From the NCBI GenBank assembly GCA_020747065.1, contig JAGMVK010000010.1, forward strand, positions 868,001 to 932,000: a stretch of 64,000 nt of DNA, given 5' to 3'. The stretch is from Cadophora sp. MPI-SDFR-AT-0126 (lineage: Eukaryota; Ascomycota; Leotiomycetes; Helotiales; Ploettnerulaceae). The notes beneath the pieces are model-generated. The model saw only the letters and a program-made list of their open reading frames with translations, was not told the DNA's origin and ran no database searches. Both the position numbers and the translations under genes were made by a program. Position 1 is the stretch's first letter; every line of letters starts with the position of its first letter. Positions 9,811 to 64,000 of the stretch are shown piece after piece.

Positions 9811-11315
9811 ATAATAGTACATCTAGCTAATTCAATTTAGTCCTCTCTTACAAGGGGTTCATTTATAAGTACTCTGATTCTATATATAATTGGCCGGAAA
9901 CTCTGAATAGAGGTACAGATAATTATTAAGGTAATCTATATTATACTTAAAATAACCTATTAACGTAGAATAAGCCGCATCTTATTTTATAATTAATTCT
10001 TAAGTTAATATACTATTCGTAAAGTATATAAGTTACTCTTCTTTTAAATAAACTACTAAATACTATATAAGCGGAAACTTCTAGTAGGTCGAAAACTCGA
10101 ATAATCGCTAGATAGCCTCCGAAGAACTTATATACTATACTTAAATATAATAGGTAATCTTATTATCTATATTTAAGACTATAAGAATTATATAATCCGT
10201 ATCTTTATATATATACTTATAGATATACTTTATAACTTAAACTAATCTATATATCTTAATATTAATATACGACTAGTACTTATTAAGAAGATATAAGTTA
10301 TATAGTATAATCCAGTTATTATCTATTATAACCTTCCGGTTACCTTTCCGGACTATAAATATCCGCGATCCGCCTCTCTATTAGTATTCTAAGTACCTGT
10401 CTTCTCGAATTATAGTTACTAACGTAAACTCCTTTAGAAATCACTTCTAATACGTTAACAGACTGTCGCTGAACTTACGGGCTATATATAGAGAAGTAAG
10501 GTAAGCTGATCTATAAGGGCCGTGAAGTATATAAGTAAGGATTAGCTCCTATAACTCACTTATAAGGTCTATAATCTTATCCGGAACCTCTATAGATATG
10601 ATCTTATTAACCTTATCTAGTGTTAAATACTTACTTAAATTTGTAATCTAAAGAAGAAGGTATAAATAAGATAGACTATATTTTTAATATTTAATAGTAT
10701 ATACGTAAGCTAAATATTTCCTAAAGAGACCTTTCTTTATATTACTTAATAGTTTAATAACCTTTAAGTAAAACACGCGAGAGATAATATTAAGTTGATT
10801 TATTACTTATTATACGTACTTATCGTATTCGCGAATAATTTCCGGTTATTACGGATTAGCTATAAAGGTAATGAAAAGCGTAGGTCGTCTGAAAAAGCAA
10901 ACTATTACTATAGAATCTTAAAATAATTATTACATAAAATAATCGCTACTAATAAAAGAAGAGGGAAATACGTAATACCAACCTAAACTACTAATCTCTC
11001 TAATATCTTCCTAAATTAATGTATCTATAAGCCTATTATACATATCTATACGGATATTCATTTAATATATCCGTAACTAATTAAGCTATATTATTTCATA
11101 AGTAATATAGGTATCAACGACATATTATTAAAATAAGTAGTTCTCCTAGAAGAGTGCGGACTATTCGCGGTCCCTTATATGTAACTAAAACCTGTAAAAC
11201 AGCTGTTAATTCAACTGTAGTTATTTATAAGTATTCTAGTGATCTAAAAGCTCTATTAACTAATGCCACTTATATTCGCTATATAGAAAGAGGAGAATGT
11301 AATATAAAGGTATAT
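9811..11315 (-). mobile_element. Helitron relic, middle part (Helitron-like N domain and Rep)
   Basis: Minus-strand reading from 11,315 leftwards gives the classic Helitron series. It starts with PLYYILLF and KWHQLIELLDHQN, then LFQ*YVVDTYI, then FPSSFISSD and FITFIANP (Helitron SSF.GS.RF and FITFT.NP), then the late Rep blocks REDRYLEY and RYISSSEA near 10,100. The HUH catalytic motif, normally H-L-H, reads Y-L-Y at 10,660-10,668, both His lost by C-to-T. The frame is continuous with 261-2,197 to the left and 23,196-23,960 to the right once the two LTR elements are removed. Strongly RIPed and inactive. Confidence 0.88.
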
Positions 11316-11501
11316 TGTGAAAGAGTAGAGTAGTGCTGTCAAGTGCATAGTAAATAGGGGAGTAACTTACGCGTGGACTATTTAGGTAATGGAAGTAAGA
11401 GGAAGAAGATAATGATTACTAGTCTAGCAGCGCTGACCTATCTATCTACAGCTGGAACGGAAAAATAAAAACCCTTATAATAGGCTTTTAACCCTACTAT
11501 A
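11316..11501 (-). repeat. 3' LTR of the gypsy element (left)
   Basis: 186 bp, TGTGAAAGAG...CTATA. It matches 23,010-23,195 apart from transitions. As the element reads right to left, this is its 3' LTR. Confidence 0.9.
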
Positions 11502-11587
11502 TACGTCCCCCCTCGGTTTAGTAGTTATCCCCTAACTGCAATAATCTTATATATAGTATAAAGAAGTCAAGAAAAGAAGAGCCAGTC

Positions 11588-14185
11588 TTACTCCCTAAGC
11601 CCTAGGTCGCCGAACTATACGCCCCTTATTCTATCCCTATATACTTCCTCCGTAAATAGTAAACCCTCCTTCAGTGCTTCTTAAAGCACTTCCTTACTTA
11701 GCTTATCCACGTCCGCCTCCACTTCCGGTATAAGTAGTCCTAACCTATCTGCCTTCTCCTTAAGAAAGTAATAGGATTTCTCTCCAAAGGCCTCCTTCTT
11801 AATCCTACGTATTATCTCAAATGCTTCCAATCCTACCCTTAGTGCTTTCCTTCTCCAATCCTCAATATACTTATACGCTGCCTCCCGATCACTCCTAAGT
11901 ACAACATCCCTTTAAGCTACTACCGCTAGTGAACTCCATCTGCAACAAGTAACCTGAGTATCAGACAAGGCCCTTAAGCCGGATACCTCTACTATAGCAG
12001 CGAACCTAAAGGGAATCGCACTATACCGGTTAGGTAACCCAGATAGTATAGCTTATAGAGTAATGAAATCCCTATAGGCGTCAGCTAGATCTCGCTACGA
12101 ACTACCTTCCACTACTTTAAGAGACTCCTCGTCATCCTATATAGCGATAAACCAGGGTAAAAGCGTTCGTCGGACAATCGTAGCAGGACCGGAGGACCTA
12201 TGCGGGATCTTAAGTAAGGCAATACGTATATCCCTCCTACTACACGGCGTTCTAACCTAATCTACCCCTAGCACCTCGGTATCCTCTCGTGTGAAAATCT
12301 AGTTCGTAATCCAGTGCACATAGCAATCGGTATCTTGCCCCCTAGCCTTGACTCGCTCCCACTATTCACCTAACTTATACTACATCCCCTTACAGATAAA
12401 GGTGCAGTTAGCCTTATCCTCCTGATCCAGCGAAATGCTTCCTTAAATTATCGCAGTCCTGTAATTAGTTGCTAAAGCCTGCGGAATATTAATATCGATA
12501 TAATAGAAGTAAGTACTATCTCCCGGAATAGTGTACTTAGCGTAGTAGGGGTAGCTGACCAGCCTCCATGCTTTATCGGGGCGAAGAGCGGCATAGAGTA
12601 TATAATACGCAGGGTCCTGACGCATAAGCTGCTAGGTAACCGAAAAGAACATATTACGCAGCTATCCAATGTTTTTCCTGCTATTGATTTCCTGAAGATG
12701 GTACCGGTATATATTAGTTTCCTCTAAGATCTTATTACCTAGTAGCGAGTCAAATTACTATTTGAAAAGACTGCGAATAATCTGCCTATCCTACTCCTAC
12801 TACGGTAATATCGACAGGTCCTAGGAGTTCAGGATTAGTTTCTGATTAAACTCAAAGATAGGTGCCCCTCCCTGCTACTGGAACTTATATAGCCCGAGTC
12901 CGTCTGAAGGCCTAGGTGGCCGATTAGCTAGCCGAAACTAATTATATATCTCTAGATCTGTCTTTAGCTTCCCTATTTCTAATCTCCGGTCGTATACCTC
13001 TTGTAAGCGCTCGATAGCAAGCTTCTCCGGTAATCTCTTCGTGTAAAGCCCTATATAGCTAGCCATCAGGCGCAGGTATCGGTAGCACACTTGTCAATAT
13101 CCTAGCATCCGCCCTAAGAGCCGCATATTCACTGCAAGGGGTAGTATTTTCTTTCCCCCGACAACTAACCTCCAATTGTTCGAGACGTCCTTGGAGCATC
13201 TGCACTTCTATCTACTATCCTCAGCATTACTCACCCCTTCCCTCTCGCGACCCTCTATCTCTTTTCCTACCTCCTCTATCTCCTCCTTATTAATTTCGGC
13301 CCTCTCACCCGAAGCAATACTAAACTCTTCTGCAGCTGCTACTCTCGCCAGTCGGTCGGACCTTCGAAGTGGATCGGCAGTAGTAGTAGTAGTCTCGCCG
13401 CTGATTTCCCCCGCCGGGCGAGCTAAATACTCTGGCTCACCTACCCCCTGCGACGAAGTTACTTCACTGACTTCAGTGCCCACACCTAGTAAGCTCAGTA
13501 ACCCCACAAATTATCCTTCCTCTGCAAAGCCACTCGCCCCAAGGCGTATCCCTATCCTTTTCCACATGCTTTCCGACATCCCTTCCAAGAGGGCACCGTC
13601 AACCTTCCCCTGCACCGCCTTCACTAGGTCCCCCGTAATAACCTCTCTCGTATTCAACACACCTCGTCTACCCGGTCCTATAACCCTCTTCCACACTTTA
13701 ATATTCACCCGCACTCTAGCCTCCTCTAAGGACATCTTTCCTAAAGCTTTACTACAGTTCGCTATAAATTCAGCCGACCTAGTTATTAGCTAATCTCGTA
13801 TAGCTCGATCGGGCTAATTCCTCGCAGTCCTAGTATATGCTTCCTAGAGGCGATTCCTTTTCTTAGCGTTTACAGCAATGACAAGGTGAACCTTAGCCCA
13901 ATTAGACTCGAACTCCGCCTTGCTCATATGCGCTTTAAAGACTCCCGATTTTTTTACGTGGTTGTAGACTTATTTAATCAAATCGCCGATCCTGTTATAG
14001 TACTTCATCATCTGTTCAAGCACTTAAGACTAAGCAGCATATTAATTTTCCGCTAGTATATCCCTCAGATATAAGATCACGTCCTTAATACTAGCGAAAT
14101 TCGGTAGTGCAACTACTACTAGCGCGTCCACCCCAGTTATACTCGTATCTTCGTTTATATTCGTCAGTAGGATTTCTACTCGCAT
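11588..14185 (-). pseudogene. Cargo ORF B in the gypsy element: large protein with a 2OG-Fe(II) dioxygenase-like motif layout (RIP-disabled)
   Basis: Not recognised as a named gene. From ATG at 14,185 one minus-strand frame runs about 865 codons to TAA at 11,588-11,590 (or TGA at 11,567-11,569 if the TAA was a Gln codon). All interruptions are TAG/TAA; I detected no frameshift (14,185, 13,735, 13,507, 12,625 and 11,902 share one frame). The middle is acidic and Ser/Arg-rich (SDRLARVAAAEE near 13,350). The C-terminal half has YPYYAKYTIPGDSTYF, then YYIDINI (codon 562 Tyr where H-x-D would need His, Asp at 564), then a Gly/Ser segment, then RRDIRIALLKIPHRSSGPA (His at codon 662) and RRTLLPWF. 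H-x-D, about 100 residues, H, then R about 10 later is the iron and 2OG site layout of double-stranded beta-helix dioxygenases. The assignment is an inference. Confidence 0.55.
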
Positions 14186-14524
14186 ACATACTTCAAAAGA
14201 TTTATTATTAAAAAAAAGTTGATTCTTTAAAAGGAAATCGCGCGGGCCGTTAAATCGTTAGAGGGGGCCGATCTCGCTTAAGAATTATTTATTTTATTTC
14301 CCGTCGCAAGTAAACAAATTAACGGAATCAAAGCATACTTCCTCTTTTTTTTTTTTTACGCCTCTTAGCTCGCAACCTTCTACTAATTCACTTTTCTTTT
14401 CACCTTTCTCTTACTATCCCTCTTAAATTCACCTTTTTCCCTAGCGCCCTTCTTAATATAAGAGGCTATCCCCGCTCCCATTTTCTTCCAATTTTCTTTC
14501 AACTTTTATAACAATTTTTCTCCT
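14186..14524. promoter_or_regulatory. Divergent intergenic region between cargo ORFs A and B
   Basis: About 340 bp separate the two cargo starts. The half next to ORF A is strongly pyrimidine-rich with a poly-T run (14,347-14,357) and CTTTTC-type tracts, typical of fungal promoters and 5' leaders. The half next to ORF B has an A-run (14,212-14,217) and a GC-rich island (GCGCGGGCCG near 14,240). This is consistent with a two-way promoter, but no transcription data exist here. Confidence 0.4.
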
Positions 14525-14582
14525 ATGCCAAACTGTCTTCCACTAGACCTTCCACTCTACACTCCTCACCTGCTTCTAGCAC

Positions 14583-16109
14583 TTGCTCTCCACTATAGCG
14601 CTAGTCCAGTTACCAAAGCTCATTACTGCAGCCTATATTAAACACTGCCCTCTCTTCGACCCCGACCCAGGAATAATGCATATTCAAGATATCATATCCA
14701 ACCTCCGTAGTAACCGCGCTGTTCGTCTATCCGACTACGTCTTCGGTGCTTTAGTTATAGCTATCGATAAAGGCATCCTAACTAAGATAGAAGTCGCGGA
14801 TGAAATGCGCATCGACTTCCTCCCCTACCTTCGGATTCATAAGGGACGTGTCTCTACTGGTCACTCCTTCCTTGACCCCGATAGCCTCTACCTCAAATTC
14901 GGCGATAAAGACCTGGCTAGTAACACTGAAACCGAGTACAACCCCTCTACTTTGGACTTTACTGCTCTCAAGGACTATAATAATTATAAGGAGTAGCTCT
15001 CTAGACTACTCTTTGCAGGTAGCGACCCTATGACTATTACCGATAAGAACTCCCTTCGACGCTATACTAAGTCTTGTACTGCCTCCACTACTACTCCAGT
15101 AACCCCCAGCCCTTTGACTACTCCTACTAAGGCTGCTGCTCCCCCTAAGACTCCTAAGAAGGGTGGATCTAAGGCTGCTTCCGCACTTAAGCTATCTATT
15201 ATTATATTTAAGAGTAAACCTAAAGCTACTCCTAAGTGTAAGGGCTAGGCCTCCGGTAAAAATAAGGGTAAGGGAAAGGTAAAGTCTAACGAATATATCC
15301 TAGATACTAATAATAACGGACCCCCTTATAATACTTTAGACGACTATAATAGCTCCCTAATCGACGGTCTTATATCCTTCCTTAATAAAGATAATAGATC
15401 TGATAGTAAATACAGTAAGTTAATACGTAAGAAGAAGAAAGGTACTACTACTTAACCTCGTAAGAAAACCTCTACTACTAGTCCATATTCTGCTCCTAAG
15501 GTAAAGGATCCTGCTACCGAGACTCCTACTAAGACTCCTAAGTCCAAAATAAAAGCTAATCCCCTCGCTCCTCTACGCACTACCCGGGCTAAAGCTAAAA
15601 TCCAAGATAGAGACCTCGCCTAAGCCCTCGCTGACTCTGCTACTAAAGCCTTAAACTCCCCGGTCGCTACTTTAGCTGCCGATGTTACTAACTAAAAGTC
15701 ACTTCCTTTGAAGGTCCAGAAGCTTATTGCCGCCCACGACTGGAAGTACGTTTGCAACGGTTTAATGTAGCACTCAGTCCTAGGAGACCCCGATAGTTTT
15801 CTTAAGCGATGCTCTTCGTGTTAGACCCTCTAATACATTCGCTATATTAAGGAGACTCGTTCCTATATCGAATCTGGCGATGAAGACAGTACTGCGGAGG
15901 GATCTCTTTACTTCTGCCTAGAGTGTATAAAGGAGACTCTTTAAGAGGCTTAGGATTTTCGCGCGGAGGCTATTAAGGCTGTTCTTGCAAGACGTACCGC
16001 CGGAGAATCTAATAATAATACTAGCGCTGCAGACGCTAAGCACCTAACTACTGGCGAAAAAGGTCCCTTAGCTTACTCCTCCTACAGTTCTAAGACTCCT
16101 ATTACTTGA
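14583..16109 (+). pseudogene. Cargo ORF A in the gypsy element: Lys/Thr/Pro-rich protein with paired CxxC motifs (RIP-disabled)
   Basis: Plus strand, opposite to gag-pol. One frame gives about 508 codons to TGA at 16,107-16,109, broken only by TAG/TAA at likely Gln/Trp codons. The 5' end is uncertain: the open part starts at a TTG at 14,583 and in-frame TAGs lie just upstream; the nearest ATG (14,525) is in another frame. The N-terminal 140 residues look globular (DEMRIDFLPYLRIHKGRVS, LDPDSLYLKFGDKD). The middle is Thr/Pro/Ala/Lys low complexity. The C-terminal part has CSSC (15,810-15,821) and CLEC (15,915-15,926), about 30 residues apart, preceded by WKYVCNGLM; this suggests a small zinc-binding or DNA-binding module. 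Family not recognised. It is convergent with pol. Confidence 0.55.
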
Positions 16110-16399
16110 AGCTATGGAGTAGTGGCTTTTACAAATAACGATAGTTGGTTTAATAAGCACTTCGATAGTAATTAGCGTTCTTACATTTGCTCTCCGGCGC
16201 GAGACATAATATTCGATATAATCTCGACTCTCGGTCCCAGATAGTTAGTAGGACTTAGTGCGGAGTACGCATGACTAGTATAATTAAGCCGAATAAAATG
16301 AAATGCATATAAATAAAACCTAAATAACTCTCGCAGTGAAATAACTAATTACTTCTTATGACTTCCTCTATACCTGTGACCCAGTTGCTAGGCTTTCCC

Positions 16400-19300
16400 C
16401 CCCCCTATTTCTAATTTACCTGGCCCTCTAAGTTCCTATTTCACCCGCCGGGCGAGTGAAATACCCCTAGTACCCCTATTACCTAGCTCGATCCTCTCAC
16501 GGAACTATAATCGCGAATCTCTTACTATCCGGTATTACTACTCTTTTTCTTTCTTTTTCTAAATTAACTACCTCTTATAAGAGCCTTCCTCAAGTAACTA
16601 GAGCTAAAGCTGAAAGTTCTTCTTCCTTCCCTTCTTCGTCTAAGCTTAGTTCGTTTCCAAGCTTAATTTCCCTAGCAGGCTCCGCGCTTTCTAAGGGTAT
16701 GCCTTCGCCTAGTTCTGGCTTAGAATTAATAAGCTTCTAAACGGAGTCTCTCTTTCGGAATACCTTTAGCTGGCTTCCTAAAAATATACCTTGTAGCTAA
16801 GTCCCGGATAGTTCGGCGAGGAGGTACGTCCCCTTCTCCAGAAGCGCTTTATCTACCTTATATAGTCCTAGCTATCTATAGCCAAGTTTAACTTTAGACG
16901 ATATATCTACTTCCTACTTCGTATTATATAGTAGTATAATATTATCCGCAGTAATTTCAGAGGAATAAATCCTCCTACTTACGTTAAACCCATCTTTCCA
17001 CATGACTCGCATCCTCTTCTGTCTAGCAGCGGCCTTCTTAAGATCCTTATCCCGGATTTAAATTTATTAAGCTCGCAATACTAGTAAGTCCGATTCTGAT
17101 TTAATATTCTCCTAGTCTATTATCCTCCAAGTTAGGATAGTGAGTTCTATTAGTAGAACAGCCTCCGACCTGTACTATATTTAGAAGGGCGTCCTACTAG
17201 TCGTAGTCTTAATAGTATAGCGGTCAGCTAGTAGGACTACATATAGATTCCTTACCCAGTCACTTAGTCCCCCTTCTGTTATTTTAGCGAGTCTATTAAC
17301 TATAGGTTTATAGCCTCTCTTAACTATGCTATTAGTAAGCGTATAGTAAGCTAAGATCACAACTCTCTTAATCCTATACTTTTTAGTAAGGCGCTTAACC
17401 CACCTCTTATTCTTAGGCCCCCTATCTATAATAAGCTTTCCGAAAATCCTATGTCTGTAAATAACGTCTTCCTAAATGAAATCTACTACTGCTACAGAGG
17501 TCGCGTTAGCCAGGGCCCTGGCCTTAACCTATCCTGAAAGATCGTCCCTAGCTACGACTAAACACCGCTTCCTATATCTCGCGGGTAGGTAGATAACGTC
17601 TATTCCGACCTTAGCCCATAAAGCGCTTATCCAGGTAAGGTGAAGAGCTTCCTCTAGTCTCGTGGAATCTTTAAATTAGTAGGCTTTACACGCGGCTACG
17701 TATTCCTTTATATCTAAGTAAAGGGTATCCTAGAAGTATCTTTCAGTAACTTTCTAGTAAGTACTTTCTCTTCCTTTATAACTTAATTCCTTATACAGGG
17801 ACCGAAGGACAGTTTACCTCTTATTCTGATTATTTAAGACCCGTCGGATTAGGAGCTTCTTATTAGCCCTACAGTAGAGCACTCTCGAGCGTACTATATA
17901 ATTCAACGCCCGCTACTTGAACGTTCTGAAATTAACTAGATTCACCCTATCGGGCCTCTTTAGTATTAATAGAAACTCCGCGATTAATCTAGAATCCAGA
18001 CTCTAACGTCCTTTCAGTTACAAAGACACTTTATTTAACTAGTACCCTATTCGAATCCAACTAAACTAAGTATTAATAAAGTTATTAATATCTACCTCCT
18101 GCGCTTTAGTATCTAACTCCTCCTAACTTACAGGGCGTCTTGAAAGCCTATCTGCCGTAGTGTGCTTAGTCCCGGGTACATAGCGCACTTTAAAATCAAA
18201 TAATCTTATCTAAGTAATCTATCTAGTGACTAAAGCTCCGGGGAGATCCGAAGTACCTTAGTTCAACTAGGCTACTAAGACCGTAGTATCCGTTTCTAGA
18301 ATAAAATGCCGTCTAATCAGGGCTCCTCGGACTTTCTTCAAGGCTTTTAGGACTCCACGACACTCCCTCTTAGTAGTATTATAATTCCTTTCCGCTACCA
18401 ACTATACTCCGCTATTATACCTGACGGGATATTTCTTTTTCTCCTAGTCCAGTTATATAAGGACTATGCCCTACCCCTAAAGGCTCGTATCCATAGCTAG
18501 TACTACTTCCCTAGTACTCTTAGAAATATCTAACCGCACTAAAGCTAGGGTAATTATTAGCGCTAGCTTCAGTTCATCTATTACTTAAACCTCCCGGTCG
18601 CGGAAATCGAACTCCACCTCTTTCTTCAGTAGGAGATAAAGCGGCTCTGCTTTCCGAGCGTAGTCCTTAATCTAAATCCAGTAGTACTTACAGACCCCTA
18701 AGAAGGCTCGGACTTCAGTTAAATTCTTATATTCTCTCTAATCCAGAATCTTAATCACTTTCTCACTATCTAGGGATCTCCCCTCTATAGTACATATAAA
18801 CCCTACTAGCTTTAGTCCCGTAACCCCAAACTAAGACTTTAGTCTAATTATAGCTCCTGCCCTTTCCACATCCGAGAGCACTAAATCCAAATTAATAAAA
18901 TATTTAAGTATAAATCTCCGTATCCCCGGCGCTGATTCCTTATTATTATAGGTAGAATATGGTCCTAGTACAGGTATATTATCAATAAAGATTCGTACTC
19001 GCGCCGGTTTATAATCCTTTAGAATCATCTTCCCTGCTCAACAGAATTAAGCTACTGAGTTAGTTGCTCCCTGAATAAGCGTAGTATGTCGAAGAAGCCC
19101 GAGAGGAGTTTGGAAGGCTATTAAGTCTCGGCTATTAGGGTACAGAGTTACTTAATCGTAGCCGGAAAAGAAGTCGATCAGGGAAGTAATTACGTAGCTA
19201 GTAAAGTCTTCAGATATCTCCTCTATATTAGGAGGTAGATTCGTATCCCTTACTATCACTGCGTTATACTTCATAGCTATATTAACCATATAGTAAGCTC

Positions 19301-20850
19301 CACTCTTCTTCTTAACCAAAAACTATTGATTTTTATAAGGCTTATGCCTATATTCTAACGTCTTAGCCTTTAACCTCTTATTAAGTATATCTTTGATATA
19401 CTTGCGTAAATGTTTTGGGACCGGGAATCCTAGTAACTGCTACACCTGGTGAGGCACTATACAAATCTCCTACGGAGAGTAAACGTCCTTATAGATCCTT
19501 CCGCATTCCGAGAAGTCAAACGCGATTACAGCCTCGCGCTAGTATAATATCTCAGTTAGGAGCTCTTTCTCCCGAGGCTATAGCTCTTCTCTAAAATTCA
19601 TCCCTTCTAACCTTTCTAGCGTTAATCTCTACCCTCTAGATAGCTCCGAGAACTTAGGAGTAATCTACTTATTAAACTCGTGCGATAGCTTAAGAGGACC
19701 CCGCCGTCTTTCTTATATTAGTCTTATCTACTTCCAATCCAGCTTCCCTTTAAGCTTCGATCTATTAGAAATACCCTCTTAAACAGGTATAACCTTATCT
19801 GCCTTCCTCTTATATACTCCCTAAATACTAATAATAGGAAAAAGCCGCTTTACCTAAATTAAAGAAATTAAATTCGTCTTCCTAGATATAACTATACTAT
19901 CCCCTCTACTAAACACTAACGCCGAGAAAACCCTAGCCCCTGCTGTTCGAACCCGATTAAACGCTGCCGCTATCTAGTTCCCTCTTTCAGTAAAGGATTT
20001 ACTAGAGACGCCTACTAATACACCCCTAGCTACTCTTTTCCCGAAAAGATTTCTGACTCGGACCTCGCCTTAGTTAAATCAGCTACTTTAACTATAACCT
20101 GCTTCGTCTACTTATTGTTAACTATAGTAGCGAATTAGCTACCCTTACTGTAAGAGAATAATATTAAGCTGCCGATAATAAAGAGCTACTCGAGGACTAT
20201 ATTATTCTCAGCCTTTTCTAACGTAAAGAAACTCCCGGTGATTATAATACTCCCTATTTCTACTACTATATTCTTATATAGCCCTCCGAACTTCTCATGC
20301 TCTCCCAAATATCTAACTATCCCTAAGTTAGGGTTAGAGCGTACAGGTAACCTTGCACTCACGGCTACGGATAATAGGATAATATTAGGCTCCGACTTAT
20401 AGTTAATCAGAGCTATTATAACTATTGAGCCTATTCGAACCTTGACCTTAGGGCTTCGAACTACTAGTAGTATAGGATCCTCCGAGCTACCTGTTATCTT
20501 AGCTGACCCTACGCTAACGTCCTTAGCCGCTCTATCTACCCTTACCTCAGGTTCCCCGGCTCACCTTCTAATTATGGCTATATTTTTAAATAGTAGCTTC
20601 TGCAGTACATCTAAATATACTAGTAGCTCTCTCCCGGTTATCCCCTTCAATTCGTTGTCTAAGAGCTTATCTAATAAGTCTATTAGACGTGTCTCCTTCT
20701 TAAGTAGGTCTATAAACCTCTTAATCTTCTTACCTACTCAGGGTCCGACCTTCCTTAGCTTTTCCGTCTACTCCTTATCTATTTCCATCTCCTCTACTAC
20801 CTCCCCCTACTATACCCTATTTCCAGAAGCCTCCTTTACTTAATCCCGGA
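16400..20850 (-). pseudogene. Pol relic of the gypsy element (protease, RT, RNase H, integrase)
   Basis: Read right to left. The retropepsin motif LIDYKSEPN is near 20,385-20,410, where LVDxGSEVN is usual. RT: the open stretch 19,028-18,831 reads PARVRIFIDNIPVLGPYSTY, the fungal gypsy form of the YxDD block with D-D changed to D-N near 18,980. RNase H follows near 18,500. Integrase has LSYKGREYTYQKVTERYF, then GIDVVYLPARYRKRCLVVA near 17,590 and LIIDRGPKNK near 17,420; the catalytic Glu region reads SIVKRGYKPI, with Glu changed to Lys. The reading ends near 16,430 with YFTRPAGEI. Gly-to-Arg, Glu-to-Lys and Gln/Trp-to-stop changes are all RIP-type. Confidence 0.88.
16437..16463. terminator. 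GC-rich near-perfect hairpin between pol and cargo ORF A
   Basis: The arms TATTTCAC and GTGAAATA flank a CGCC/GGCG core, giving about 13-bp arms with one mismatch. It lies between the convergent 3' ends of pol (minus) and ORF A (plus). A related, less symmetric copy lies at 13,403-13,429 inside ORF B. A role in ending transcripts is a guess. Confidence 0.35.
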
Positions 20851-21059
20851 CCTTCTAACTCCCTAGGCGAGGTACTTTAAGGGCCGCTAAATCCTTTTCC
20901 TTCTCCACATACCCTTTCAGAATCTTCCTTAGGTTCACCTACTTATTATTTCCCTTCGCTTTTAACTTCTTACTCCTCGCGCCTGCTACTCCTACTACAC
21001 CCTAATCCGCCTCTCTTTCCTCTTTATCCGACTCGTCCTACAGGACTATCCCTGCTACT

Positions 21060-22760
21060 ATCCTACTAATATCCTCCATAGTTACAGCTAGTTAGTACAC
21101 TACTTCTTATCTAACTAATCTACTTAAGGCCCCTTGCTTTAAAGCTTCCCACTATTACCGCACAATTTCTCTTCCAGGGACTCCCTACTTTACTTACACA
21201 GAATCACTTCTATCCTCTCTCTTTCCCTAATATATTCTTCCCTAGACTTCATATATAAACCCCTTCTCCGTATTTAATATAAAGTCGAGGTACTCCCTTT
21301 AGTAGTAGCTGTTCTCTATATAATAGAAGTAGTACGTAGGGTGATTATTATATATTCCTGCAGCCCTAACTGCAGTTAGTACTACGTTATATCGCTATCC
21401 TACATATATAGCCTAAGGTAGCTTTAATAGATCGATCCGACCTGAAGGCCTAGCCGGGTACGCCCTAATACAGTTTCCCCTGCTAAGCGGGCTAAATCCT
21501 AAGCGCGCCCCTAGACTAACCCTAAAAAGCGCAGCCTTCGCAGCGAGTATGAGCGTATTAAGAGCTTAAGTTATCTCCCTAATAGCTTCAGTAGAGACCG
21601 AACTTAGCGTAATCACTAGGACTACTAGGCGATCTTCACTTTTTCGCGAAATAATTATTTAGCCTAAAGTATTTACTAATTCGCTTAAGCCCTCCTTCTT
21701 TTCACAGCTATTAGAGAACTCTCGAACTATCTTATTCGCAGTATAAATACTAGTAGCTATCTTTATAAGTTCATTAAACACAATAGTATCCGGCTTATTA
21801 ATATTAACTTTATTCTTCCGAATTACCTTTCCGCGAACGTCTCCTAAGAGACTATTTAAGAACTAGATACCTCTAGTATAGCCCTCGAGCTGCCCCTTAT
21901 CTATAAGGGTAGCTAAGACTGCTATATACTATTGAATAAACTTCCGGACATTATCCTCGCTTATTCGCGGCTTCGATTTTAAAGCCTCCAAGAAGGATCA
22001 GGAATTCATCTATTAGAAGGTATCTTAATCCTTATACTCCTCTTGAAGTTCTTCGATTAAATACTTCTAATTTAGATAAGCTTAAGTAACTAGTATCTTA
22101 ATATACTACTTAATAGATAACCTGTAGTACCGCGGAAGTTACTTTACCTTATCTTTCATTTTTAACTACGTATCTTTGCACTAATCTAAATACCGCTTAA
22201 GAAATTCAGTAATATTAGCTCTATTAAAGTATAGGACCCCCGGAGTTCTAGGCGCGGGTATCGGAGCTATATACCTTAAATCAGCTATCTTTATAATAGT
22301 AGCGGTAGAGTCGGCTTACCCCCCTTACTAAATAGGAGGATACTGTTCCGTTTCTTCGCTGCTTTCTGTATTTAGCGTTAGTTAAAAGCTTTCCGAAAGA
22401 TCTTCCTCTAGGAATAAACCGGCTTTAATAAGATCTGGAAATAACTCGAGTCTTTAATAGCAGTAGCTACTTATTAGGTATAGTAAAGCGCAAATCGTTA
22501 GTGTTAGTAGTAGTAGCGCTAAGAGTATTAGAGCGATATAAGCGCCCCTTATAATCTTCAGTCCTAATACTCTAATACTTACCTTATCTACTACTATACT
22601 TACTTGCGATCCCTTTTTCCTTAGCCCTTTTTCCTTATACTCCTTCTTAGCCCGCCTCCTCTTTATATTTATTTACTCTTTAGCAGGCGATTAAGCTCGC
22701 TTAGCCCTATTACTCCACCGCGTTTCCCTAGCAACTATAGTTTTCTCCTCCCCCTAATTT
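21060..22760 (-). pseudogene. Gag relic of the gypsy element
   Basis: Minus-strand frame with RIP stops. A basic N-terminal stretch (INIKRRRAKKEYKEKG near 22,660) leads into a Leu-rich stretch at about 22,470-22,580 that was probably Pro-rich before CCA became CTA. The capsid-like core follows: ADLRYIAPIPAPRTPGVLYF near 22,260, then VRKFIQ, YTRGI and VRGKVIRKNKVNI near 21,850. This is the Gag arrangement of a common ascomycete gypsy group. A C-terminal zinc knuckle was not found with confidence. Confidence 0.75.
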
Positions 22761-23009
22761 CTCTTATCTCAGCTATACCTCGGCACCTTACTAAGGTATA
22801 ATCCGTCCGCTATTAACCTTGGCTTTACACCGCGGGTTCCTTAAAGCTCTGTAAAGCCCCTTTTTCCTAAACCGTTCTACTATATTCCGATATTCTCAAG
22901 GCGTTTCACTAATCGTTAATGAAATTCAATCTCTTACTTCCTACCTAAGTTAACTTATACTCGGTTTTACGCCTATATTACTTTCTTGACTCCTTACGTA
23001 AGTTACTAA

Positions 23010-23195
23010 TATAAAAGAGTAAAGTAGTGCTATTAAGTGCATAGTAAATAGGGGAGTAACTCACGCGTGGACTATTCAGGTAATAGAAGTAAGAGAAAGA
23101 AGATGATAATTACTAGTCTAGCGGCGCCGACCTGTCTATCTACGGCCGGAACGGAAAAACAAAAACCCTTGTAATGGGCCTTCGACCCCACTACA
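23010..23195 (-). repeat. 5' LTR of the gypsy element (right)
   Basis: 186 bp, TATAAAAGAG...CTACA, matching 11,316-11,501. It retains more CpG and GC than the left LTR (for example GGCGCCGACC), so the two LTRs took different mutation loads. Confidence 0.9.
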
Positions 23196-23960
23196 ATATA
23201 TATAGCAGAGGTTATAGGTACTTAATAAAGAAGTAGCCTATTATAGCTTAGCTCGCGGATTATAAGTATTATATCTTATTAGCTAGTATTATTATACTTA
23301 TTAGGTAAGATTTCTATAAGCTCGTTAATAATAAGGAAATTCTCTTATTATTTATCTACCCTTATTTGAATTACTAAACATATTTATAGACTTAAAACTA
23401 TCCAAAAATATCCGTTAAGTGTCTATAAATATTCCTAAGTAGTCTTATAAATACCAATAAATAAATTTTCCTCTATAATTATCTTATATAAATCACAAAG
23501 GATTATTAAATTAAGGCACGAATTATATTCTAACTATATATTAACTATATAATCAGGATTATAAAAGAACAACTAAGTAAAGGCAGGGCGTTCTTATAAG
23601 CCGGGAATTAAGGGATCCTATAGGTAGTATATCTCCCTATAAGCTATAAAAGTCGTAAGGCTACGCATTAAATCGATATAGTCCTCCTTTCCAGCGTTTA
23701 TAAACGTAAATACTAACGTAGAATTATATTTATAGATATCCCGGCGGAAACTTACACTTTATAGATCCGTATTATTTAAAAGCCTCTATAAAACTAGTAG
23801 CAGTAGCTGTAAAAGGTCTAACTTAATATCTTCTTTCTTATAGTAAAACTTAAATTCCCTACTAAGTCTCTGCTTACTAATCTAGTGTAAAGCCTTGTAA
23901 TACGTATATATATATACTATCTCTCTAGTAGAAAACAGATCTATAATAGTAAAAACAAAT
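23196..23960 (-). mobile_element. Helitron relic, N-terminal part
   Basis: Minus-strand reading from about 23,960 gives the start of a Helitron protein: KALH*ISKQRLSREFKFYY (a former CxxC-like block), then NSTLVFTFINAGKEDYIDL, then ERPAFTQLFFYNPDY and YNSCLNLIIL, and a block ending VPITSAIY. These match the Helitron order S.G...D, G..P.FAQLY.YD, NP.L, then HY.LLFP. It continues in frame into 11,315 across the gypsy insertion. The start codon and the 5' TC end were not located. Confidence 0.8.
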
Positions 23961-50916: not shown

Positions 50917-51189
50917 GTGGAGGGTGAATCCTGGCCACAGTGCAGTGATCTCATAAGAGCGAATATCCTTATACCAGGAATGTCACCCACCATCCCAGAT
51001 TATAGTCGGCATGATATTGACACTGTTTCATGCTGTCTCAAGGTGCAATGGCCTTGGGGCAAGAACTTTCTGGTACCGGGCGGCGATTCGGGGCTTCAAG
51101 TCTTACCTGCGGTTTACGAGACTTTCATGTCGCTGACTGGTTGGGACATGGTGGGTAATTTCGCACAGGTACATCCAGAGCTTGTGTAA
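50917..51189 (+). pseudogene. Unidentified ORF remnant
   Basis: An open frame of 90 codons ending in TAA at 51,187-51,189. It starts at a GTG, not an ATG; the first ATG in frame (50,980) would leave about 69 residues. Codon use and composition look coding (CLKVQWPWGKNFLVPGGDSG, LPAVYETFMSLTGWDMVGNF). The C-terminal shape, with a Trp-Pro-Trp and an acidic end, suggests the tail of a globular enzyme whose N-terminal part was lost at the repeat boundary. I do not recognise the family. Confidence 0.35.
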
Positions 51190-51402
51190 GGCTTGAGCAT
51201 AGAGGTTATCCGGTATGAATGGAGATAAATGTAGTTACACTCTATGCTCGCGGATCATGGGCTCACATCAGAATGTCATGCTGCGAGGTCCTACTCAGCA
51301 GTGATTACCTCTAATACAGGGGCAACTTTACGAAAATAATACTGGCTGGGCGTAAAGTGTACAAGAAAGCCGAACTTCGACAATCCCCTTTCCCAGCTTC
51401 CT

Positions 51403-52423
51403 TCACCATCCGCAGATTTTGAGGCCACCAAATGTGCGATGATATCGACTATGGCACAGCAGTTCACACATGCTGTTCCGCTGTGAACTATGGCGGAGAT
51501 TCGCGCCGCGCCGTTGATATCCTAGGAGAACACTGCCCCAGAAAGCCTGGACGAGAATCACGCCTTCCTCCTCCTCAGCAGTAAACTCATTGCTCACCGC
51601 AACCGGGACGCATTTCTCCTCCTTGTAGATTCTCGCATCCCATCTGAGGTCGAGAGAAATGATTGGTAGCACTAAAAGTTCCAGCACATTGTCAATGTCA
51701 ATGCCCTCCCGGCGTCGCCTCGCCCAGATATACTTGCTTTGGCAAAGAGCGTGACACCACCAGTTACTGGAGTTGATTTTTTCTTCCCACGATCGACAAA
51801 TCTGGATTCCCGATCGAATTACGCATCATCCACAAGTGGACTGATGGTTGTCGTTGCTTCTCTGAATCCCCAAAAGACCCGTCTAAGGATTCAAACGATG
51901 TCTTCATTCTCTGCAGAAATTGGCCCTTGATAATTTTGGGGACATAAACGCCGGAGCTGATAATACAAGCCTGAATGCATATTCCCACTCTACCTTGGGT
52001 GCCTTCGAGAACTGCCACGTCAAGGTTTGTATCAGGAGATGCGATGCCTGAACTCTTGGCCCCCAACTCGAGTGTCACTCGCTTCAGGTTGCAAGAAGCT
52101 TCCTCCTGTGCGAATTTTGTCCCAGTGTCGGCACAGCCGTTAAAGGAAGTCTCACTGATATCCAAATGTGACGCAAGCAAGGCGCCTGTTTCGCTGCTAA
52201 CGGATATGATACTTAAAAGGCCTGGGGCGTTCCTGCCTCATCCACAGCTTGCCGAAGTAGAGCTTGAGAGAGCAGTAGTTTCGGATGCTTTCGTGACCAT
52301 AGTGTTTCTGCCTGCAAGGCATGGCGCATCTTTCACTACGGTCAATACTGCTGGGCCATCAAAGGAGTGAACAGCCGCGCAAACCCCAATGGGTTCATGG
52401 CGGTCTCCAAGCTCCTCGGTCAT
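51403..52423 (-). pseudogene. Aldehyde dehydrogenase (ALDH superfamily) pseudogene
   Basis: NAD(P)-dependent ALDHs oxidise aldehydes to acids. Three minus-strand pieces follow in family order. First, 52,423-52,238: RHEPIGVCAAVHSFDGP and NTMVTKASE, ending at an in-frame TGA. Second, 52,180-51,764 in the same frame: ETGALLASHLDI just upstream, then SFNGCADTGTKF, the Glu motif LELGAK (LELGGK) and a Cys at the nucleophile position (QACIISSGVYV). Third, 51,687-51,403 in another frame: RIYKEEKCVPVAV (EEIFGPV) and the end block FGGLKICGW (FGG.K.SG.G). So at least one stop and one frameshift are present, and the region between Cys and EEIFGPV is shortened. The first about 100 residues are missing. 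Decay here is by indels and stops, not by RIP. A vanillin or salicylaldehyde dehydrogenase-like subgroup is possible but not shown. Confidence 0.82.
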
Positions 52424-52980
52424 ATCTCAGTAACAAACAGATTTGTTACAAAACCAAGAACAGGGGCTTAGAGCGGGAAATCGATACCTCAGAGCAAACC
52501 AAAGACCACATATTAGCTGATTAATCAAGTAGTCGAGATGTGGTGAGGCGCACGCTTCCTTTCCATGGTGTGCGGTGGTGACTATCAACATACAAATGCA
52601 GCCACTCCCTGCTCATTCCTCATTGGAGAAATATCGAGCTTGAATCCTCCAACTGTTATAGACTCCAGAGTCTATATTCCAGTCTTCAATAGCGGAGCAT
52701 CCGCCGTCCCCTCACTCTGTCGAACAATGATAAAGTCTCGACATATGTGCCTGTATGAATACGGCGCTCACGTGTTCTATTAATATAGAATCTGCCGTAT
52801 GATCGGAACGCTATGACCTCTGCGGGCAGAGGCAGAATCATAGAGACTAGACGAAATCAGTCATATCAGCCAATGGGACCCGGAAAATGTAGGGGTCAAC
52901 CCCTCGGAGCCAAGGGCGACTGCCTACAACCGGCTTTGTTGTGTGCCTAAAGTATATATTGAACTCATATACACTTAATT
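52424..52980. other. No gene seen
   Basis: Normal composition. The short frames here do not match a family and stop quickly. The lost N-terminus of the aldehyde dehydrogenase would be expected at the left end. Confidence 0.3.
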
Positions 52981-53361
52981 AAGGCTGTGGCGAACATACC
53001 CTTCCCACCCCATGCACCATCAGCGAACGCCCCAAACAACCCAGATCTTGCAGAGCCAGAAGTTCCTTTGGAGTGTACTGCCATGGGTGTTAGGTTGTTG
53101 GAAACGTTAACTCCTGCAGAAATTTAGCCTGCTTTGGATCGCATAAAAAGGAAGGAGGAAGGATTCCGTGTTCACCACGCCTCAAGACCCATCGGAGTGT
53201 CATTCCGTTATAAATGGCAGCTAGCTCAATCACGGCTAGTAGATCTGCCAGGCAGTGATGATATTGTGACTTCTTGCTTCTTCACTGCGATCATTTCACA
53301 CTACGCGCGCACGGCAGTCCAGCTCGACACGATGTTGACTCCCAATGCACAAGACGCCTGA
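52981..53361 (+). pseudogene. Unidentified short ORF relic with one in-frame TAG
   Basis: One plus-strand frame runs about 126 codons to TGA at 53,359-53,361, with a single TAG near 53,127. It starts with a Pro/Asn-rich stretch (NIPFPPHAPSANAPNNPDL), then LLETLTPAEI-stop-PALDRIKRKEEGF, then RPIGVSFRYKW. The sharp change from open frame to TAG where Gln would fit (PAEIQ) suggests a recent nonsense mutation, or just a chance frame. No ATG start in a good place (first ATG 53,083). Function unknown. Confidence 0.3.
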
Positions 53362-53636
53362 ACCACCGGATCTCAAAGTCCACTACATCTAGAGAGATCC
53401 GATGGAACCTGCTCCAAACTAGAGCGTCAAGCTGTGGTGTCTAGTCATCCCGGCTTTCCACCTCCACAAGTGGCTGCTGCTAAGACTGCCACACTGCAAG
53501 TGACTCAACAACTTACCAACTACCACCATCGACTGACGAGTGAGATATTCCGGCCTGAGTCCAATCGATTTGGCCTGTAGCTAAATTTTGTCTCGCAGTC
53601 TTACTCATGATATCGTCGTCTTGACTAGTCACTACA

Positions 53637-55126
53637 ATGGCCCAACTAGCAAAATGGGTTCGGATATATGTGGCTGTTTTGATCTCCCTGATACTTCTAG
53701 CCTCTTCTGCTGCACTTAATGTTATCCGTGGACCTTCACCACGAAGGTTCATAGCGGGCAATCAAAGACGGAACGTCTCATTTTCCTTGACCCAGATACG
53801 AAACCCGAAGTGGAAACCACGGGAGACATCCACAACTGCAGTATACGCTGCAGAGTTCCTGAAGCACAAAGTGCGTATGCCCAAGGATCTCCGACTCGCC
53901 TGGGAAAAGCTCACATCGCACGACGACCAAAGTTCAAATCCCTCGATTCACCGCCGAGTTGGAGGACAACTTGTGAGGTACAGTGATGGCCAGTATGTAT
54001 GCATCAGCAGGATCAACAAGGGCCTTGACTGACGGATTTCTGATGACATAGATACGTGTTTCCTGTGACAATTGGAACGCCAAAGCAGACATTGAATTTG
54101 ATCTTTGATACGGCTTCAGGAGACTTTTGGGTATGGTCATGGCTGATGCCGATAGATATGCTGCAGAATCGCAAATAGTGAGTCCAGCAGTCCCAGAAAG
54201 CGAGTCTGTAAAATAATAACCTGCGAACATACTTGAGACTAACTTTTGTCAGCTATAACGGCTCGGCATCGTCGGATGCTACACCATGGGACGGCCAGTC
54301 TTGGGGTGCTACTTATGCGGTTGGAAGCAATTATGGCATCGTTTGGCAAGACATCGTCTGGGTAGATGCCATTGGTGTAGCAGGCAATCCGATAGAGTGT
54401 TCTCAAGGTGTCTCGAACTGGTTTGCATCTTTGCCGGGGGTTGACGGTGTCCTTGGACTGAGCTATGCCTACAACGATTCCGAAAGGCCAGAACCCCAGC
54501 AAACATGGATAACATACATTTTGCCACTACTTGCTTGTAGGTGCACGAACAGATGCAGCTTACAGATGATTGACTCTCCATCAGCTCCTGTGTTTACGGT
54601 CTCCCTCGTCCGCAATGGAATCGGCGTCATTGACTTCGGGTTCATTGACCAAAAGAAATATATCGGTAACATCGTCTATACACCAATCACCATCATCCCG
54701 GGCGGCGGAGCATTCTGGGCGTTCAATTGGACGGGGTTTGCAATAGGTTCGGACAAATTCAATCGCACTAATATCCAAGTCATGACAGATACAGGAGGAA
54801 ATATTTCCATGTTTCCCGAGTCAATTGCCAACAGATACTATAAATTAGTAGCTGGCAGCTATAAACAGGGAGATGGGGCGTGGATATTTCCCTGCAAAGC
54901 AACTCTTCCAAATTTCGTATTCGGAGTTGGGAACTCTCGAATCCTGGTAGCTGGGAAAAATTTCATCTTGACGAACCTTCCAGATGGCATAAATTGCATA
55001 GGAGGCATCCAGAGTAGAGAGGAAGACACATATGTGTTCCTCTCTATCCCTTTTATGCAGTCTATCTTTGTTGTCCATGACTACGGCAACATGAGACTTG
55101 GCTTCGCGAATCGGACGTGGGGATGA
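53637..55126 (+). CDS. Secreted A1-family aspartic protease-like protein, three exons
   Basis: Joining 53,637-53,992, 54,052-54,177 and 54,253-55,126 gives 1,356 nt, exactly 451 residues plus TGA. Intron 1 is 59 bp (GTATGT...TAG); intron 2 is 75 bp (GTGAGT...CAG, branch ACTAAC). The start is an ATG followed by a clear signal peptide (residues 1 to about 27: VAVLISLILLASSAAL). A propeptide of the aspergillopepsin type follows (YAAEFLKHKVRMPKDL). The mature part has FPVTIGTPKQTLNLIFDTAS with Asp138, a flap-like segment YAVGSNYG, DGVLGLSYAYN, and the second site TDTGG with Asp340, ending GFANRTWG. Both catalytic Asp are kept, but the first motif is Asp-Thr-Ala where the family has Asp-Thr-Gly. 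No stop or frameshift. It may be an active, altered or non-peptidase homologue. It lies 555 bp upstream of aro1 on the same strand. Confidence 0.82.
53993..54051 (+). other. Intron 1 of the aspartic protease-like gene
   Basis: 59 bp, GTATGT to CATAG. Removing it joins ...S-D-G-Q to Y-V-F-P-V-T-I-G-T-P in frame, which is the family sequence. Confidence 0.85.
54178..54252 (+). other. Intron 2 of the aspartic protease-like gene
   Basis: 75 bp, GTGAGT to GTCAG with ACTAAC about 10 bases before the acceptor. Removal joins Q-N-R-K-Y to Y-N-G-S in frame. Confidence 0.85.
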
Positions 55127-55415
55127 ACCTTAAGGATAAGCGTGCCTCTGCCATGTTGGGCCTTCTGTAAACAAGAGTGTAGAGACGATCGATCCATCCG
55201 CCCAGTGTGGGAAATGCATGGCCTGAAAGGCGGAGGGTGATCGAGGCAACCAAAGGAAAGTAGGGGGCGAGACGATGCAAATAAAACGAATTTCGTGGTA
55301 CTCATCTCTAGAGAATATATATGTATAACAGATCCGAAAATGGGGAATGCATGCTGACTACTGATAACAACCTCCTCGAAGCTCACAAGCGAATGCGGCC
55401 AGAGGCATGAGTATG
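55127..55415. other. Intergenic, 3' side of the aspartic protease gene
   Basis: No gene seen; no canonical AATAAA, only the AT-rich stretch AATATATATG near 55,314. Confidence 0.4.
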
Positions 55416-55423
55416 TCACGTGA
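55416..55423. promoter_or_regulatory. Palindromic E-box TCACGTGA upstream of aro1
   Basis: A perfect 8-bp palindrome 259 bp before the aro1 ATG. In fungi TCACGTGA/CACGTG is bound by bHLH factors (Cbf1, Pho4 or SREBP types). Occupancy is not known. Confidence 0.4.
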
Positions 55424-55513
55424 GCTGCAGCTCCCTACACCGCCCCGGCAGAAAAAAAGGTTTCCACCGTAGTCGGAGCAGCACTTAGTCCTTGTCCTTG
55501 TCCCTCCTCGAAG

Positions 55514-55520
55514 GAGTCAT
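55514..55520 (-). promoter_or_regulatory. Possible Gcn4/CpcA-type half site
   Basis: The minus strand reads ATGACTCC, one base off the ATGACTCA core used by general amino-acid control factors, which are known to control aromatic amino-acid genes in fungi. A weak single site. Confidence 0.25.
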
Positions 55521-55541
55521 ACCTGTCTCTTTCCCAACTTC

Positions 55542-55547
55542 ATGTAA
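55542..55547 (+). promoter_or_regulatory. Start-stop minimal uORF ATGTAA in the aro1 leader
   Basis: The only ATG seen in the roughly 180 bases before the aro1 start is directly followed by TAA. If the transcript begins upstream of it, ribosomes would pause or reinitiate here. Confidence 0.3.
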
Positions 55548-55561
55548 ACGGACCAAAGTAA

Positions 55562-60475
<4,914 letters not shown>

Positions 60476-62408: not shown

Positions 62409-64000
62409 TCAGTCATGAATGCCACCCACCCGACGCCGACTCTTGGTCATATCAACATGCTCAGGATGCACCACGCGCAAGTGACGAGTTAATGCGTCGT
62501 TCCGGCTGAAGGTCTTCTCCTCGGTGCATAGCGGACAGTGCACCTTCAACTTGCGTGCGTTGTGGATGGTGTCCTCATGTCGGGTGAGATCGTATGGACG
62601 AGAGAAAATGGTGTTACATGGCTTGCCAGTTGATGGATTGATACGTTCACACTGCGTTTAATTAGTATTTATTTGTCGTCAAATGGTAAAAACAAGAGAG
62701 GAATGAAAGGAAGGATTTGGATGAAAATGGGGAACCGAGCTTTGTGAAAATTGTGAAAAACTGTGAGAAAAGAAGAAAACTTACTTTGTGAGGCCCCGCT
62801 TGAGAATTGCGTTGCGCCGCTGAGGTCATCCCGCCTTCATCCCCGCCGCCGATCACCGCCGAAGCCGAATTTCGGTGGCCTTCGCGTTTGTGTCGCTGCA
62901 GCTTCGCTGGAGTGTCGAAACGGAGAGTGCAGCCATGGTAGGTACAAGTGTAGGTGCCAGTGTCGGCCGCTGCACCCAAAGGCTTTTTCATGTCCGAAGA
63001 GTCAGCAGCAGCATACTCGCTGCTGCTGGATTCCATCGAGGTAAGCGTCGAGGGGAAGTCCTCGCTGACGTTGGAGAGATTGCTTGGTTGGCGTCGGGAG
63101 TTCGGGACGAATGGGTATTGCTGAGGAATCTGCCGGACGCTGCCTGCAACCGCCGGAGGCACAAAGTTGAATGAGCCCTGGTGTTGCGTGGTCTGCGAGG
63201 CTGTTGAGTATGCTGACGAGCTTTCCCTCCTCGTGGTCGCCATGCTACCATAACTTCTCTGGGACGCATTGTCATCATCCGAGGGATCCTGAGCCAGAGC
63301 AGGCTGTTGGCGATAATTTGAAGTCTGACGCTGGTTCTGCTGTGGTGGGAATAATGGAGTATTCGCATCCTCCTCGCTCTCGTGATACACTAGATCAACA
63401 TCCTTCGGTGAAATTGTCTTGGGTGTGGAGTGTTCCGAGGATGCCCTCTCCAGCTGCTGCTGCAATGCCCGCGCATCGCTCTCCGCCTTTTGCTGCTGTC
63501 TCAAATGCTGTGCAGTTCCAAAACGAACATTGGGCGACTGCGGCCCAAAAGTATTTCCCAACGGCGCCAGGGGGGACCCTTGCCTGAAGGGCGACCGCTC
63601 TCGTGAAGGTATCGTCAGAGGTGTTTGAATGTTGGCACTCAAGTGCTGAGAGTTCGCAGCTTGGAGTCTCTGCGAAAAGACATCGTTCTGAGGCGAAAGA
63701 GTGACGCTGGGCGCGGGAGTCGAGGAAGGCGTCGACGTGAGTTGGAAGTTTGGGTTGTAGAGTTCGTCGGTATAGACGTCCGTCATTGTCCTGTTGAGTT
63801 TGGGGACCGTATTTCTATGTGCTTCATCGTCGCAATGTTGTAAGTATTCAGACAACCATAAATCGAACCGCGAAGTCTCACCATTCTTTTGTCTGTCTTC
63901 CTCGTATGACGGTGGCGTGGATGGTGAGTCATTTGCCACCGTAGATGATATTGACGGCCTCCCCGACTGGTTGAAATCCGGAGCTGCCAACAGCTCGGAG
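62409..64000 (-). CDS. C2H2 zinc-finger transcription factor (5' end outside the window)
   Basis: Coding on the minus strand: from the right edge (64,000, frame still open, no start seen) to 62,785, a 133-bp phase-0 intron (62,784-62,652, GTAAGT...GCAG), then 62,651 to TGA at 62,409-62,411. The visible protein is about 485 residues. The N-terminal two thirds is Ser/Gln/Pro-rich and disordered (SVTLSPQNDVF, RERSPFRQGSPLAPLGNTF). The C-terminus has three fingers: CTYHGC...LQRHKREGH; C-x10-C in CERINPSTGKPC with DLTRHEDTIH, directly after the splice; and CPLCTEEKTFSRNDALTRH with VVH. The block RPYDLTRHEDTIHNARK is typical of a conserved ascomycete C2H2 family. Nuclear DNA-binding regulator; targets unknown. 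Confidence 0.88.
62652..62784 (-). other. Intron of the C2H2 zinc-finger gene
   Basis: 133 bp on the minus strand, GTAAGT to ACGCAG, phase 0, between G-P-H-K and C-E-R-I-N. Reading through it gives a Phe-rich tail and a stop, so it must be spliced to make fingers 2 and 3. Confidence 0.88.

What the first reader, a model, noticed from the sequence alone, without database searches (positions are those of the whole stretch)
11588..16463. Gypsy retrotransposon carrying a divergent two-gene cargo between pol and the 3' LTR
Seen: between the pol end (about 16.4 kb) and the polypurine tract next to the left LTR lie about 4.6 kb with two long frames on opposite strands, starting from a shared 340-bp region and broken only by RIP-type stops. 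The LTR pair and the short duplication enclose them, so they travelled inside this element. Known: gypsy elements normally end soon after integrase; extra ORFs at this place are rare (env-like, or antisense ORFs in some plant elements). Inference: a cargo-bearing gypsy lineage, possibly a small self-protection or mobility module. It could instead be a separate element nested inside.
Basis: partly seen in the sequence, partly recalled or inferred. Interest (0 to 1): 0.85.

Follow-up and report, generated by a model that had tools for sequence, protein, structure and literature searches.

The report
Fungal retrotransposon carrying an oxygenase gene
A fungal jumping element of the gypsy kind carries two extra genes as a fixed part of itself, one of them for an iron-dependent oxygenase that might help it evade the host's silencing; a few other mobile elements are known to carry comparable enzymes.

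Summary
An 11.88-kb Ty3/gypsy element (window 11316-23195, minus strand, 186-bp LTRs) carries two divergent genes between pol and the 3' LTR. They are a fixed part of the family: all 20 pol-bearing copies found in the genome have both (17 uninterrupted, 3 split by later insertions), and 7 of 8 LTR pairs tested have a matching 4-bp duplication. All copies found are broken by RIP. No terminal repeats bound the cargo, so a nested transposon is unlikely.

The sense gene (11591-14185) has at least 54 database relatives (best E 1.3e-170). The model of an intact relative shows a PhyH/DUF1479-type 2-oxoglutarate/Fe(II) oxygenase with a conserved HxD...H...R site; by profile it is not TET/JBP. The antisense gene (about 14619-16110) found no database relative, but its N-terminus is related to two open nuclear genes of the same genome.

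Closest known: antisense gene brtn in Botrytis Boty elements, AlkB in orchid gypsy elements, TET/JBP in fungal DNA transposons. The proposed role, erasing a host silencing mark, is inference; substrate and presence in other species' elements are untested.

The parts
11312..11315 (.). target-site duplication, left copy (ATAT)
   Evidence: matches 23196-23199; 7 of 8 LTR pairs in the genome match at 4 bp
11316..11501 (-). 3' LTR (element lies on the minus strand)
   Evidence: 24 transitions and 0 transversions from the other LTR
11507..11514 (-). polypurine tract candidate next to the 3' LTR
   Evidence: read directly from sequence; not tested
11591..14185 (-). cargo gene 1: PhyH-type 2-oxoglutarate/Fe(II) oxygenase, about 860 codons, 31 in-frame stops
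   Evidence: 54 relatives, best E 1.3e-170; PhyH profile in 10 of 54 relatives; model of relative P0005 pLDDT 83.1; fold matches
14186..14618 (.). divergent intergenic region shared by the two cargo genes; possible bidirectional promoter (inferred)
   Evidence: position only; edges approximate
14619..16110 (+). cargo gene 2: antisense gene; N-terminal part related to open nuclear genes; Lys/Pro/Thr-rich middle; start and end approximate
   Evidence: (27% over 222 aa, E 4e-14 against the gene at C6:1304190-1305233)
13404..13428 (.). copy of a 25-bp palindrome (3 mismatches), in frame in the oxygenase linker, giving RPAGEI
   Evidence: frame
16438..16462 (.). 25-bp palindrome at the pol/cargo junction (0 mismatches to the degenerate pattern)
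16464..18401 (-). pol, RNase H end and integrase piece
   Evidence: Pfam RT_RNaseH 1.6e-6, Integrase_H2C2 2.6e-6
18402..20009 (-). pol, reverse transcriptase piece
   Evidence: Pfam RVT_1 8.5e-4, below the curated cut-off; 20 family copies in the genome
20043..22528 (-). gag/protease region by position (no Pfam match)
23010..23195 (-). 5' LTR
23196..23199 (.). target-site duplication, right copy (ATAT)

Best explanation
This is an 11.88-kb Ty3/gypsy LTR retrotransposon family that acquired two genes between integrase and the 3' LTR and multiplied with them. Gene 1, in the sense of pol, makes a protein with a helical N-terminal domain, a disordered linker, a CxC...CxxH motif that may bind zinc, and a C-terminal 2-oxoglutarate/Fe(II) oxygenase domain of the PhyH/DUF1479 kind. 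Gene 2, antisense and divergent, makes a basic, low-complexity protein whose N-terminal domain is shared with two nuclear genes. Shown: anatomy, linkage to the element, homology, modelled fold of an intact relative, RIP-type decay. Inferred: the pair is expressed from its own bidirectional promoter, independently of the LTR, and the oxygenase oxidises a host silencing mark (on DNA, RNA, histone or another protein) so that the element is transcribed before RIP destroys new copies, with gene 2 as a nuclear or chromatin partner. The anatomy and homology part is about 0.95 likely, the counter-silencing role about 0.4.
Confidence: 0.6

Rival explanations
1. Passive transduction: the element captured two host genes by accident and amplified them in one recent burst; the cargo gives the element no benefit.
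For: Transversions between copies are few (26 in 9,883 bp; at most 32, in 5,612 bp), so the copies may stem from one recent master element. Gene 2 has open nuclear relatives.
Against: Two genes of about 2.6 and 1.5 kb lie behind pol in 20 of 20 pol-bearing copies found. No host donor of the oxygenase was seen: all 32 matches scored carry stops. Gene 2 is antisense and only 27% identical to the nuclear gene, so it is not a fresh copy.
Confidence: 0.25
2. A separate transposon carrying the divergent pair inserted into a gypsy element and was then carried along.
For: The oxygenase family is found on many fungal and metagenome contigs, and dioxygenase genes are reported to pass between transposons (PMC12730594).
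Against: No terminal inverted repeats bound the cargo; the longest inverted pair is 22 nt at 82%, with arms inside the genes. 29 of 30 fetched oxygenase loci hold the gypsy LTR, the other is cut by a contig end, and 2 of 32 matches were not fetched. No copy of the pair was seen outside the element.
Confidence: 0.07
3. The oxygenase is a TET/JBP enzyme, which would make this a TET-bearing retrotransposon.
For: Same superfamily and HxD...H site; Kojima 2025 reports diverged TET-like proteins recognised only by structure (PMC12730594, sections 3.2.3 and 3.4).
Against: Tet_JBP matched none of 54 relatives at E<=0.01 while PhyH matched 10 of 54. No TET is among the 50 VIA rows shown, which does not exclude it.
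Confidence: 0.06

Closest known systems
Boty-like retrotransposons of Botrytis cinerea with the antisense gene brtn (Zhao et al. 2011: only its title seen, in reference lists; described in passages of PMC4227169, PMC8365987, PMC7264820)
   Same: Fungal gypsy element with an additional gene antisense to gag-pol; PMC7264820 places it between pol and the 3' LTR, the same place and direction as cargo gene 2.
   Different: No oxygenase was mentioned in the passages seen; brtn sequence was not at hand, so homology with gene 2 is untested.
Phalaenopsis orchid gypsy elements encoding an AlkB-type 2-ODD RNA demethylase (PMC9289625, abstract and Discussion)
   Same: Gypsy element with an additional ORF for a 2-oxoglutarate/Fe(II) dioxygenase kept through amplification.
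   Different: AlkB family, plant host, 25-kb elements, no divergent partner gene described in the parts read; here PhyH-type, fungus, 11.9 kb.
TET/JBP dioxygenases in fungal DNA transposons (PMC12730594)
   Same: Mobile elements of fungi carrying a 2OG oxygenase, proposed to counter methylation silencing.
   Different: DNA transposons and Helitrons; [quoted passage not shown] Our protein is PhyH-type by profile and fold rows.
PhyH / DUF1479 oxygenases (YbiU, Candida GIG2)
   Different: 12-13% identity; extra N-terminal helical domain, linker and Cys-rich motif; carried by a retrotransposon.

Membership tests
Ty3/gypsy LTR retrotransposon | LTR pair with TG...CA ends and short target duplication | tested here: met
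   186-bp LTRs; matching 4-bp duplications in 7 of 8 pairs (RIP has altered some LTR ends)
Ty3/gypsy LTR retrotransposon | RT-RNase H-integrase order in pol | tested here: met
   RVT_1 weak (8.5e-4, below cut-off), RT_RNaseH 1.6e-6, Integrase_H2C2 2.6e-6, in that order; integrase core profile not matched
Ty3/gypsy LTR retrotransposon | tRNA primer binding site | not tested
   not searched
PhyH-type 2OG/Fe(II) oxygenase | double-stranded beta-helix fold | tested here: met
   model of relative P0005; Foldseek and VIA matches
PhyH-type 2OG/Fe(II) oxygenase | HxD...H...R active site | tested here: met
   in relatives: HxD pattern 48 of 54, distal pattern 47 of 54; D562 invariant, H560, H660, R670, R671 at least 90%. 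The window copy has lost the first His.
PhyH-type 2OG/Fe(II) oxygenase | Pfam PhyH profile | tested here: met
   10 of 54 relatives at E<=0.01, best 4.8e-6; 44 of 54 and the window protein itself do not match
TET/JBP dioxygenase | Tet_JBP profile match | tested here: not met
   not among the four families matched by any of 54 relatives at E<=0.01
TET/JBP dioxygenase | closest fold is TET/CMD1 | tested here: inconclusive
   no TET among the 50 rows shown; absence there is not exclusion
[quoted passage not shown]
   20 of 20 pol-bearing copies found
Boty/brtn-type antisense additional ORF | sequence homology with brtn | not testable with these tools
   no brtn sequence identified; two searches found no homolog of gene 2
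independent (nested) DNA transposon | terminal inverted repeats bounding the cargo | tested here: not met
   10 inverted pairs of 14-22 nt, none at the cargo ends

The most novel reading that the evidence does not exclude
A PhyH-type oxygenase family of about 850 residues, with its own Cys-rich and helical domains, spread through fungi largely inside gypsy retrotransposons as a counter-silencing enzyme: an LTR-element parallel to TET/JBP in DNA transposons, possibly acting on a mark nobody has assigned to a PhyH enzyme. A short PAxE motif shared by the pol tail and the oxygenase linker would tie the two proteins to one partner, and the antisense gene would be derived from a nuclear gene.
Probability: 0.25. 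Interest if true: 0.82.

Novelty: new variant of a known kind. Interest (0 to 1): 0.62.

Why it matters
Additional genes in LTR elements are a long-noted puzzle. A review (PMC7264820, section 6 read) argues that antisense ones are not transduced genes because no similar genes are found outside the elements; here the antisense gene has two open nuclear relatives in the same genome, which makes its origin testable. As far as the searches listed here show, the sense gene adds a further class of 2OG oxygenase to gypsy elements (AlkB is known in orchids) and to mobile elements of fungi (TET/JBP is known in DNA transposons), which suggests that oxidative erasure of host marks may be a recurrent strategy. 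Relatives without stops exist in databases, so the enzyme's substrate can be assayed.

Tried and rejected
First frame chosen for the oxygenase and for RT was wrong and dropped. Pfam on the window's own cargo proteins gave nothing significant, nor did sequence search of the PDB with P0002, P0003 or the family profile. TET/JBP, my first idea from the HxD motif, was rejected on profile evidence; the Tet_JBP genome search is uninformative because no control genome rang either. Relatives in viral and prokaryotic contigs: none confirmed of 26 and 14 pattern stretches. Rfam: nothing at gathering scores. Gene 2 against the protein database: nothing at E<=0.001 with residues 30-560 (only 7,989 candidates sharing most words were scored, and low-complexity words probably swamped them) and nothing at E<=1 with residues 43-180 (161 candidates). 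C17 LTR pair: flanks CTAG and GTAT do not match, 13.5 kb apart, probably not one element; it is kept in the count of 8. LTR ends without a known mate (L040, L041, L046/L065, L048, L066) were not used for duplications. LTR dating not attempted: all 24 differences are transitions. Palindrome as a dispersed genomic element: rejected, the 4 places matched at up to 3 mismatches lie in this family. Whether the related open gypsy family has an LTR close behind pol was not settled: the repeat goes on for at least 2.2 kb behind its pol. Of 7 papers fetched, PMC3248453 gave nothing on this cargo in the passages shown. No fold search of the N-terminal domain alone was made.

Literature: searches (open-licence library only) listed no paper whose title or abstract start reports a PhyH-type oxygenase in an LTR retrotransposon; Zhao 2011 was not read.

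Full report
What is there. The window lies in a 54.0-Mb, 38-contig assembly; that it is a fungus is inferred from the RIP pattern, the fungal relatives and a pentafunctional AROM gene. Window 11316-23195 is one gypsy element on the minus strand: 5' LTR at 23010-23195, gag/protease region, pol to about 16.46 kb, then about 4.9 kb of extra sequence, then the 3' LTR at 11316-11501. The two LTRs differ by 24 transitions and no transversion. RIP-type composition runs through the element (TpA/ApT 1.33-2.0; CpA+TpG index 0.40-0.92), while the gene-rich end of the window shows the opposite (0.60 and 1.37).

The cargo belongs to the element. A genome search with the RT piece (81 of 111 candidates scored, so counts are lower bounds) found 20 copies of this family (58-100% identity; 18 in one row, 2 in two rows), all with stops. 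Each has gene 2 on the opposite strand and the oxygenase on pol's strand, in that order behind pol. In 17 of 20 the three lie together; in 3 (C6:224844, C23:647514, C34:2277749) RT matches of another gypsy family lie between, and I read the pieces as one copy split by later insertions. The gap between RT and gene 2 is 2,098-2,107 bp in 18 of 20; the exceptions are C6:224844 (2,458) and C23:647514 (14,070). For C1:3841734 the 'nearest oxygenase' printed belongs to another piece; its own is at C1:3834979-3837068. I fetched 30 of the 32 oxygenase matches, some of them pieces of one copy: 29 hold the family LTR and the other is cut by a contig end. Eight LTR pairs could be tested for target duplications, and 7 match at 4 bp (C2, C5, C7, two on C23, C12, C37), against 10 of 56 mismatched pairings (Fisher P 2e-4; the pairings are not independent). 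Ten fetched loci align with the window's element at 76-87% identity with few gaps; the longest alignment, 9,883 bp, has 1,548 transitions, 26 transversions and 17 gap columns, and the most transversions seen are 32 (in 5,612 bp). The element therefore moved as a unit with its cargo, recently enough to leave few transversions, and was then mutated by RIP. The genome has DNA-methylase matches, among which I did not identify the RIP enzyme.

No sign of a nested transposon. Inverted repeats in 11500-16700 are short (10 pairs of 14-22 nt, 77-89% complementary) and do not sit at the cargo ends.

Cargo gene 2. The plus-strand frame from about 14619 to about 16110 found nothing in the protein database. 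In the genome it matches the family copies and, at E 7e-11, an open 348-aa frame at C6:1304190-1305233; directly compared, 27% over 222 aa, E 4e-14. By eye the first 150 residues or so of that alignment are not low-complexity; the rest partly is. The same search from the nuclear gene returned the window's gene 2 and a third, longer open frame at C13, of which I fetched 703 codons. So gene 2 shares its N-terminal domain with a small nuclear family. The C6 gene matches no Pfam family; the C13 gene was not tested. Direction of transfer is not shown, but two diverged nuclear genes and a single element lineage favour host to element.

Relation to other elements in the genome. The next gypsy family (42% RT identity) has five open, same-scoring copies. 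They are not among the matches of either cargo gene. In the one copy that I fetched, no frame of 100 codons or more lies in the 3.4 kb behind pol; 2.2 kb of that stretch is the same in all five. As far as these searches go, the cargo is specific to one lineage in this genome.

How it probably works (inferred). The two genes start from a shared region of about 430 bp, away from the LTR promoter, so I expect bidirectional transcription independent of the genomic RNA. [quoted passage not shown] I cannot exclude a metabolite substrate. RIP has hit every copy found, so any protection is limited, for example to transcription between sexual cycles.

Novelty. [quoted passage not shown] A 2OG oxygenase in a gypsy element is known in orchids. 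The combination, the PhyH type and nuclear relatives of the antisense gene were not seen in the searches listed. I rate it a new variant of a known kind.

Noticed in passing
window 13404-13428 and 16438-16462: A 25-bp palindrome, matching the degenerate pattern without mismatch at the pol/cargo junction and with 3 mismatches inside the oxygenase linker (0 expected by shuffles); the 4 places matched in the genome are in this family. One frame of each copy reads RPAGEI, PAREI also occurs in the pol tail, and 18 of 54 oxygenase relatives carry PAxE[IMLV], 15 of them at residues 210-337, in or near the linker.
   Followed up: partly
G000 C6:1304190-1305233 (L039:3188-4234 -) and C13 (L067:2-2110 -, cut): Two open nuclear genes sharing an N-terminal domain (29% over 108 aa) that is also the N-terminus of cargo gene 2; no Pfam family for the C6 gene.
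   Followed up: partly
G000 C3:115022, C8:1361033, C22:31949, C23:655418, C38:573077: Five open, same-scoring gypsy copies without stops in the matched stretch, in a genome with strong RIP; the C23 copy lies between pol and cargo of a copy of the present family. Apparently recent activity.
   Followed up: partly
G000 C5:1403830, C10:376133, C13:1159194, C18:732613, C23:3009765, C23:3239036, C34:1395714: A second, distant RT family (25% identity) with seven open frames of 1341 codons, no stops.
   Followed up: no
window 26000-51000 / 51000-64000: Sharp compositional border near 51 kb: mostly 15-34% G+C on one side, about 50% on the other, with open genes beyond it: pentafunctional AROM protein (55607-60475 +) and an aspartyl protease (54233-55126 +).
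   Followed up: partly
BFVD A0A401IPD4: An 824-aa protein of a shrimp nimavirus matches the oxygenase model (Foldseek E 7.8e-7, TM-scores low at 0.25-0.26); similar total length to the cargo protein.
   Followed up: no
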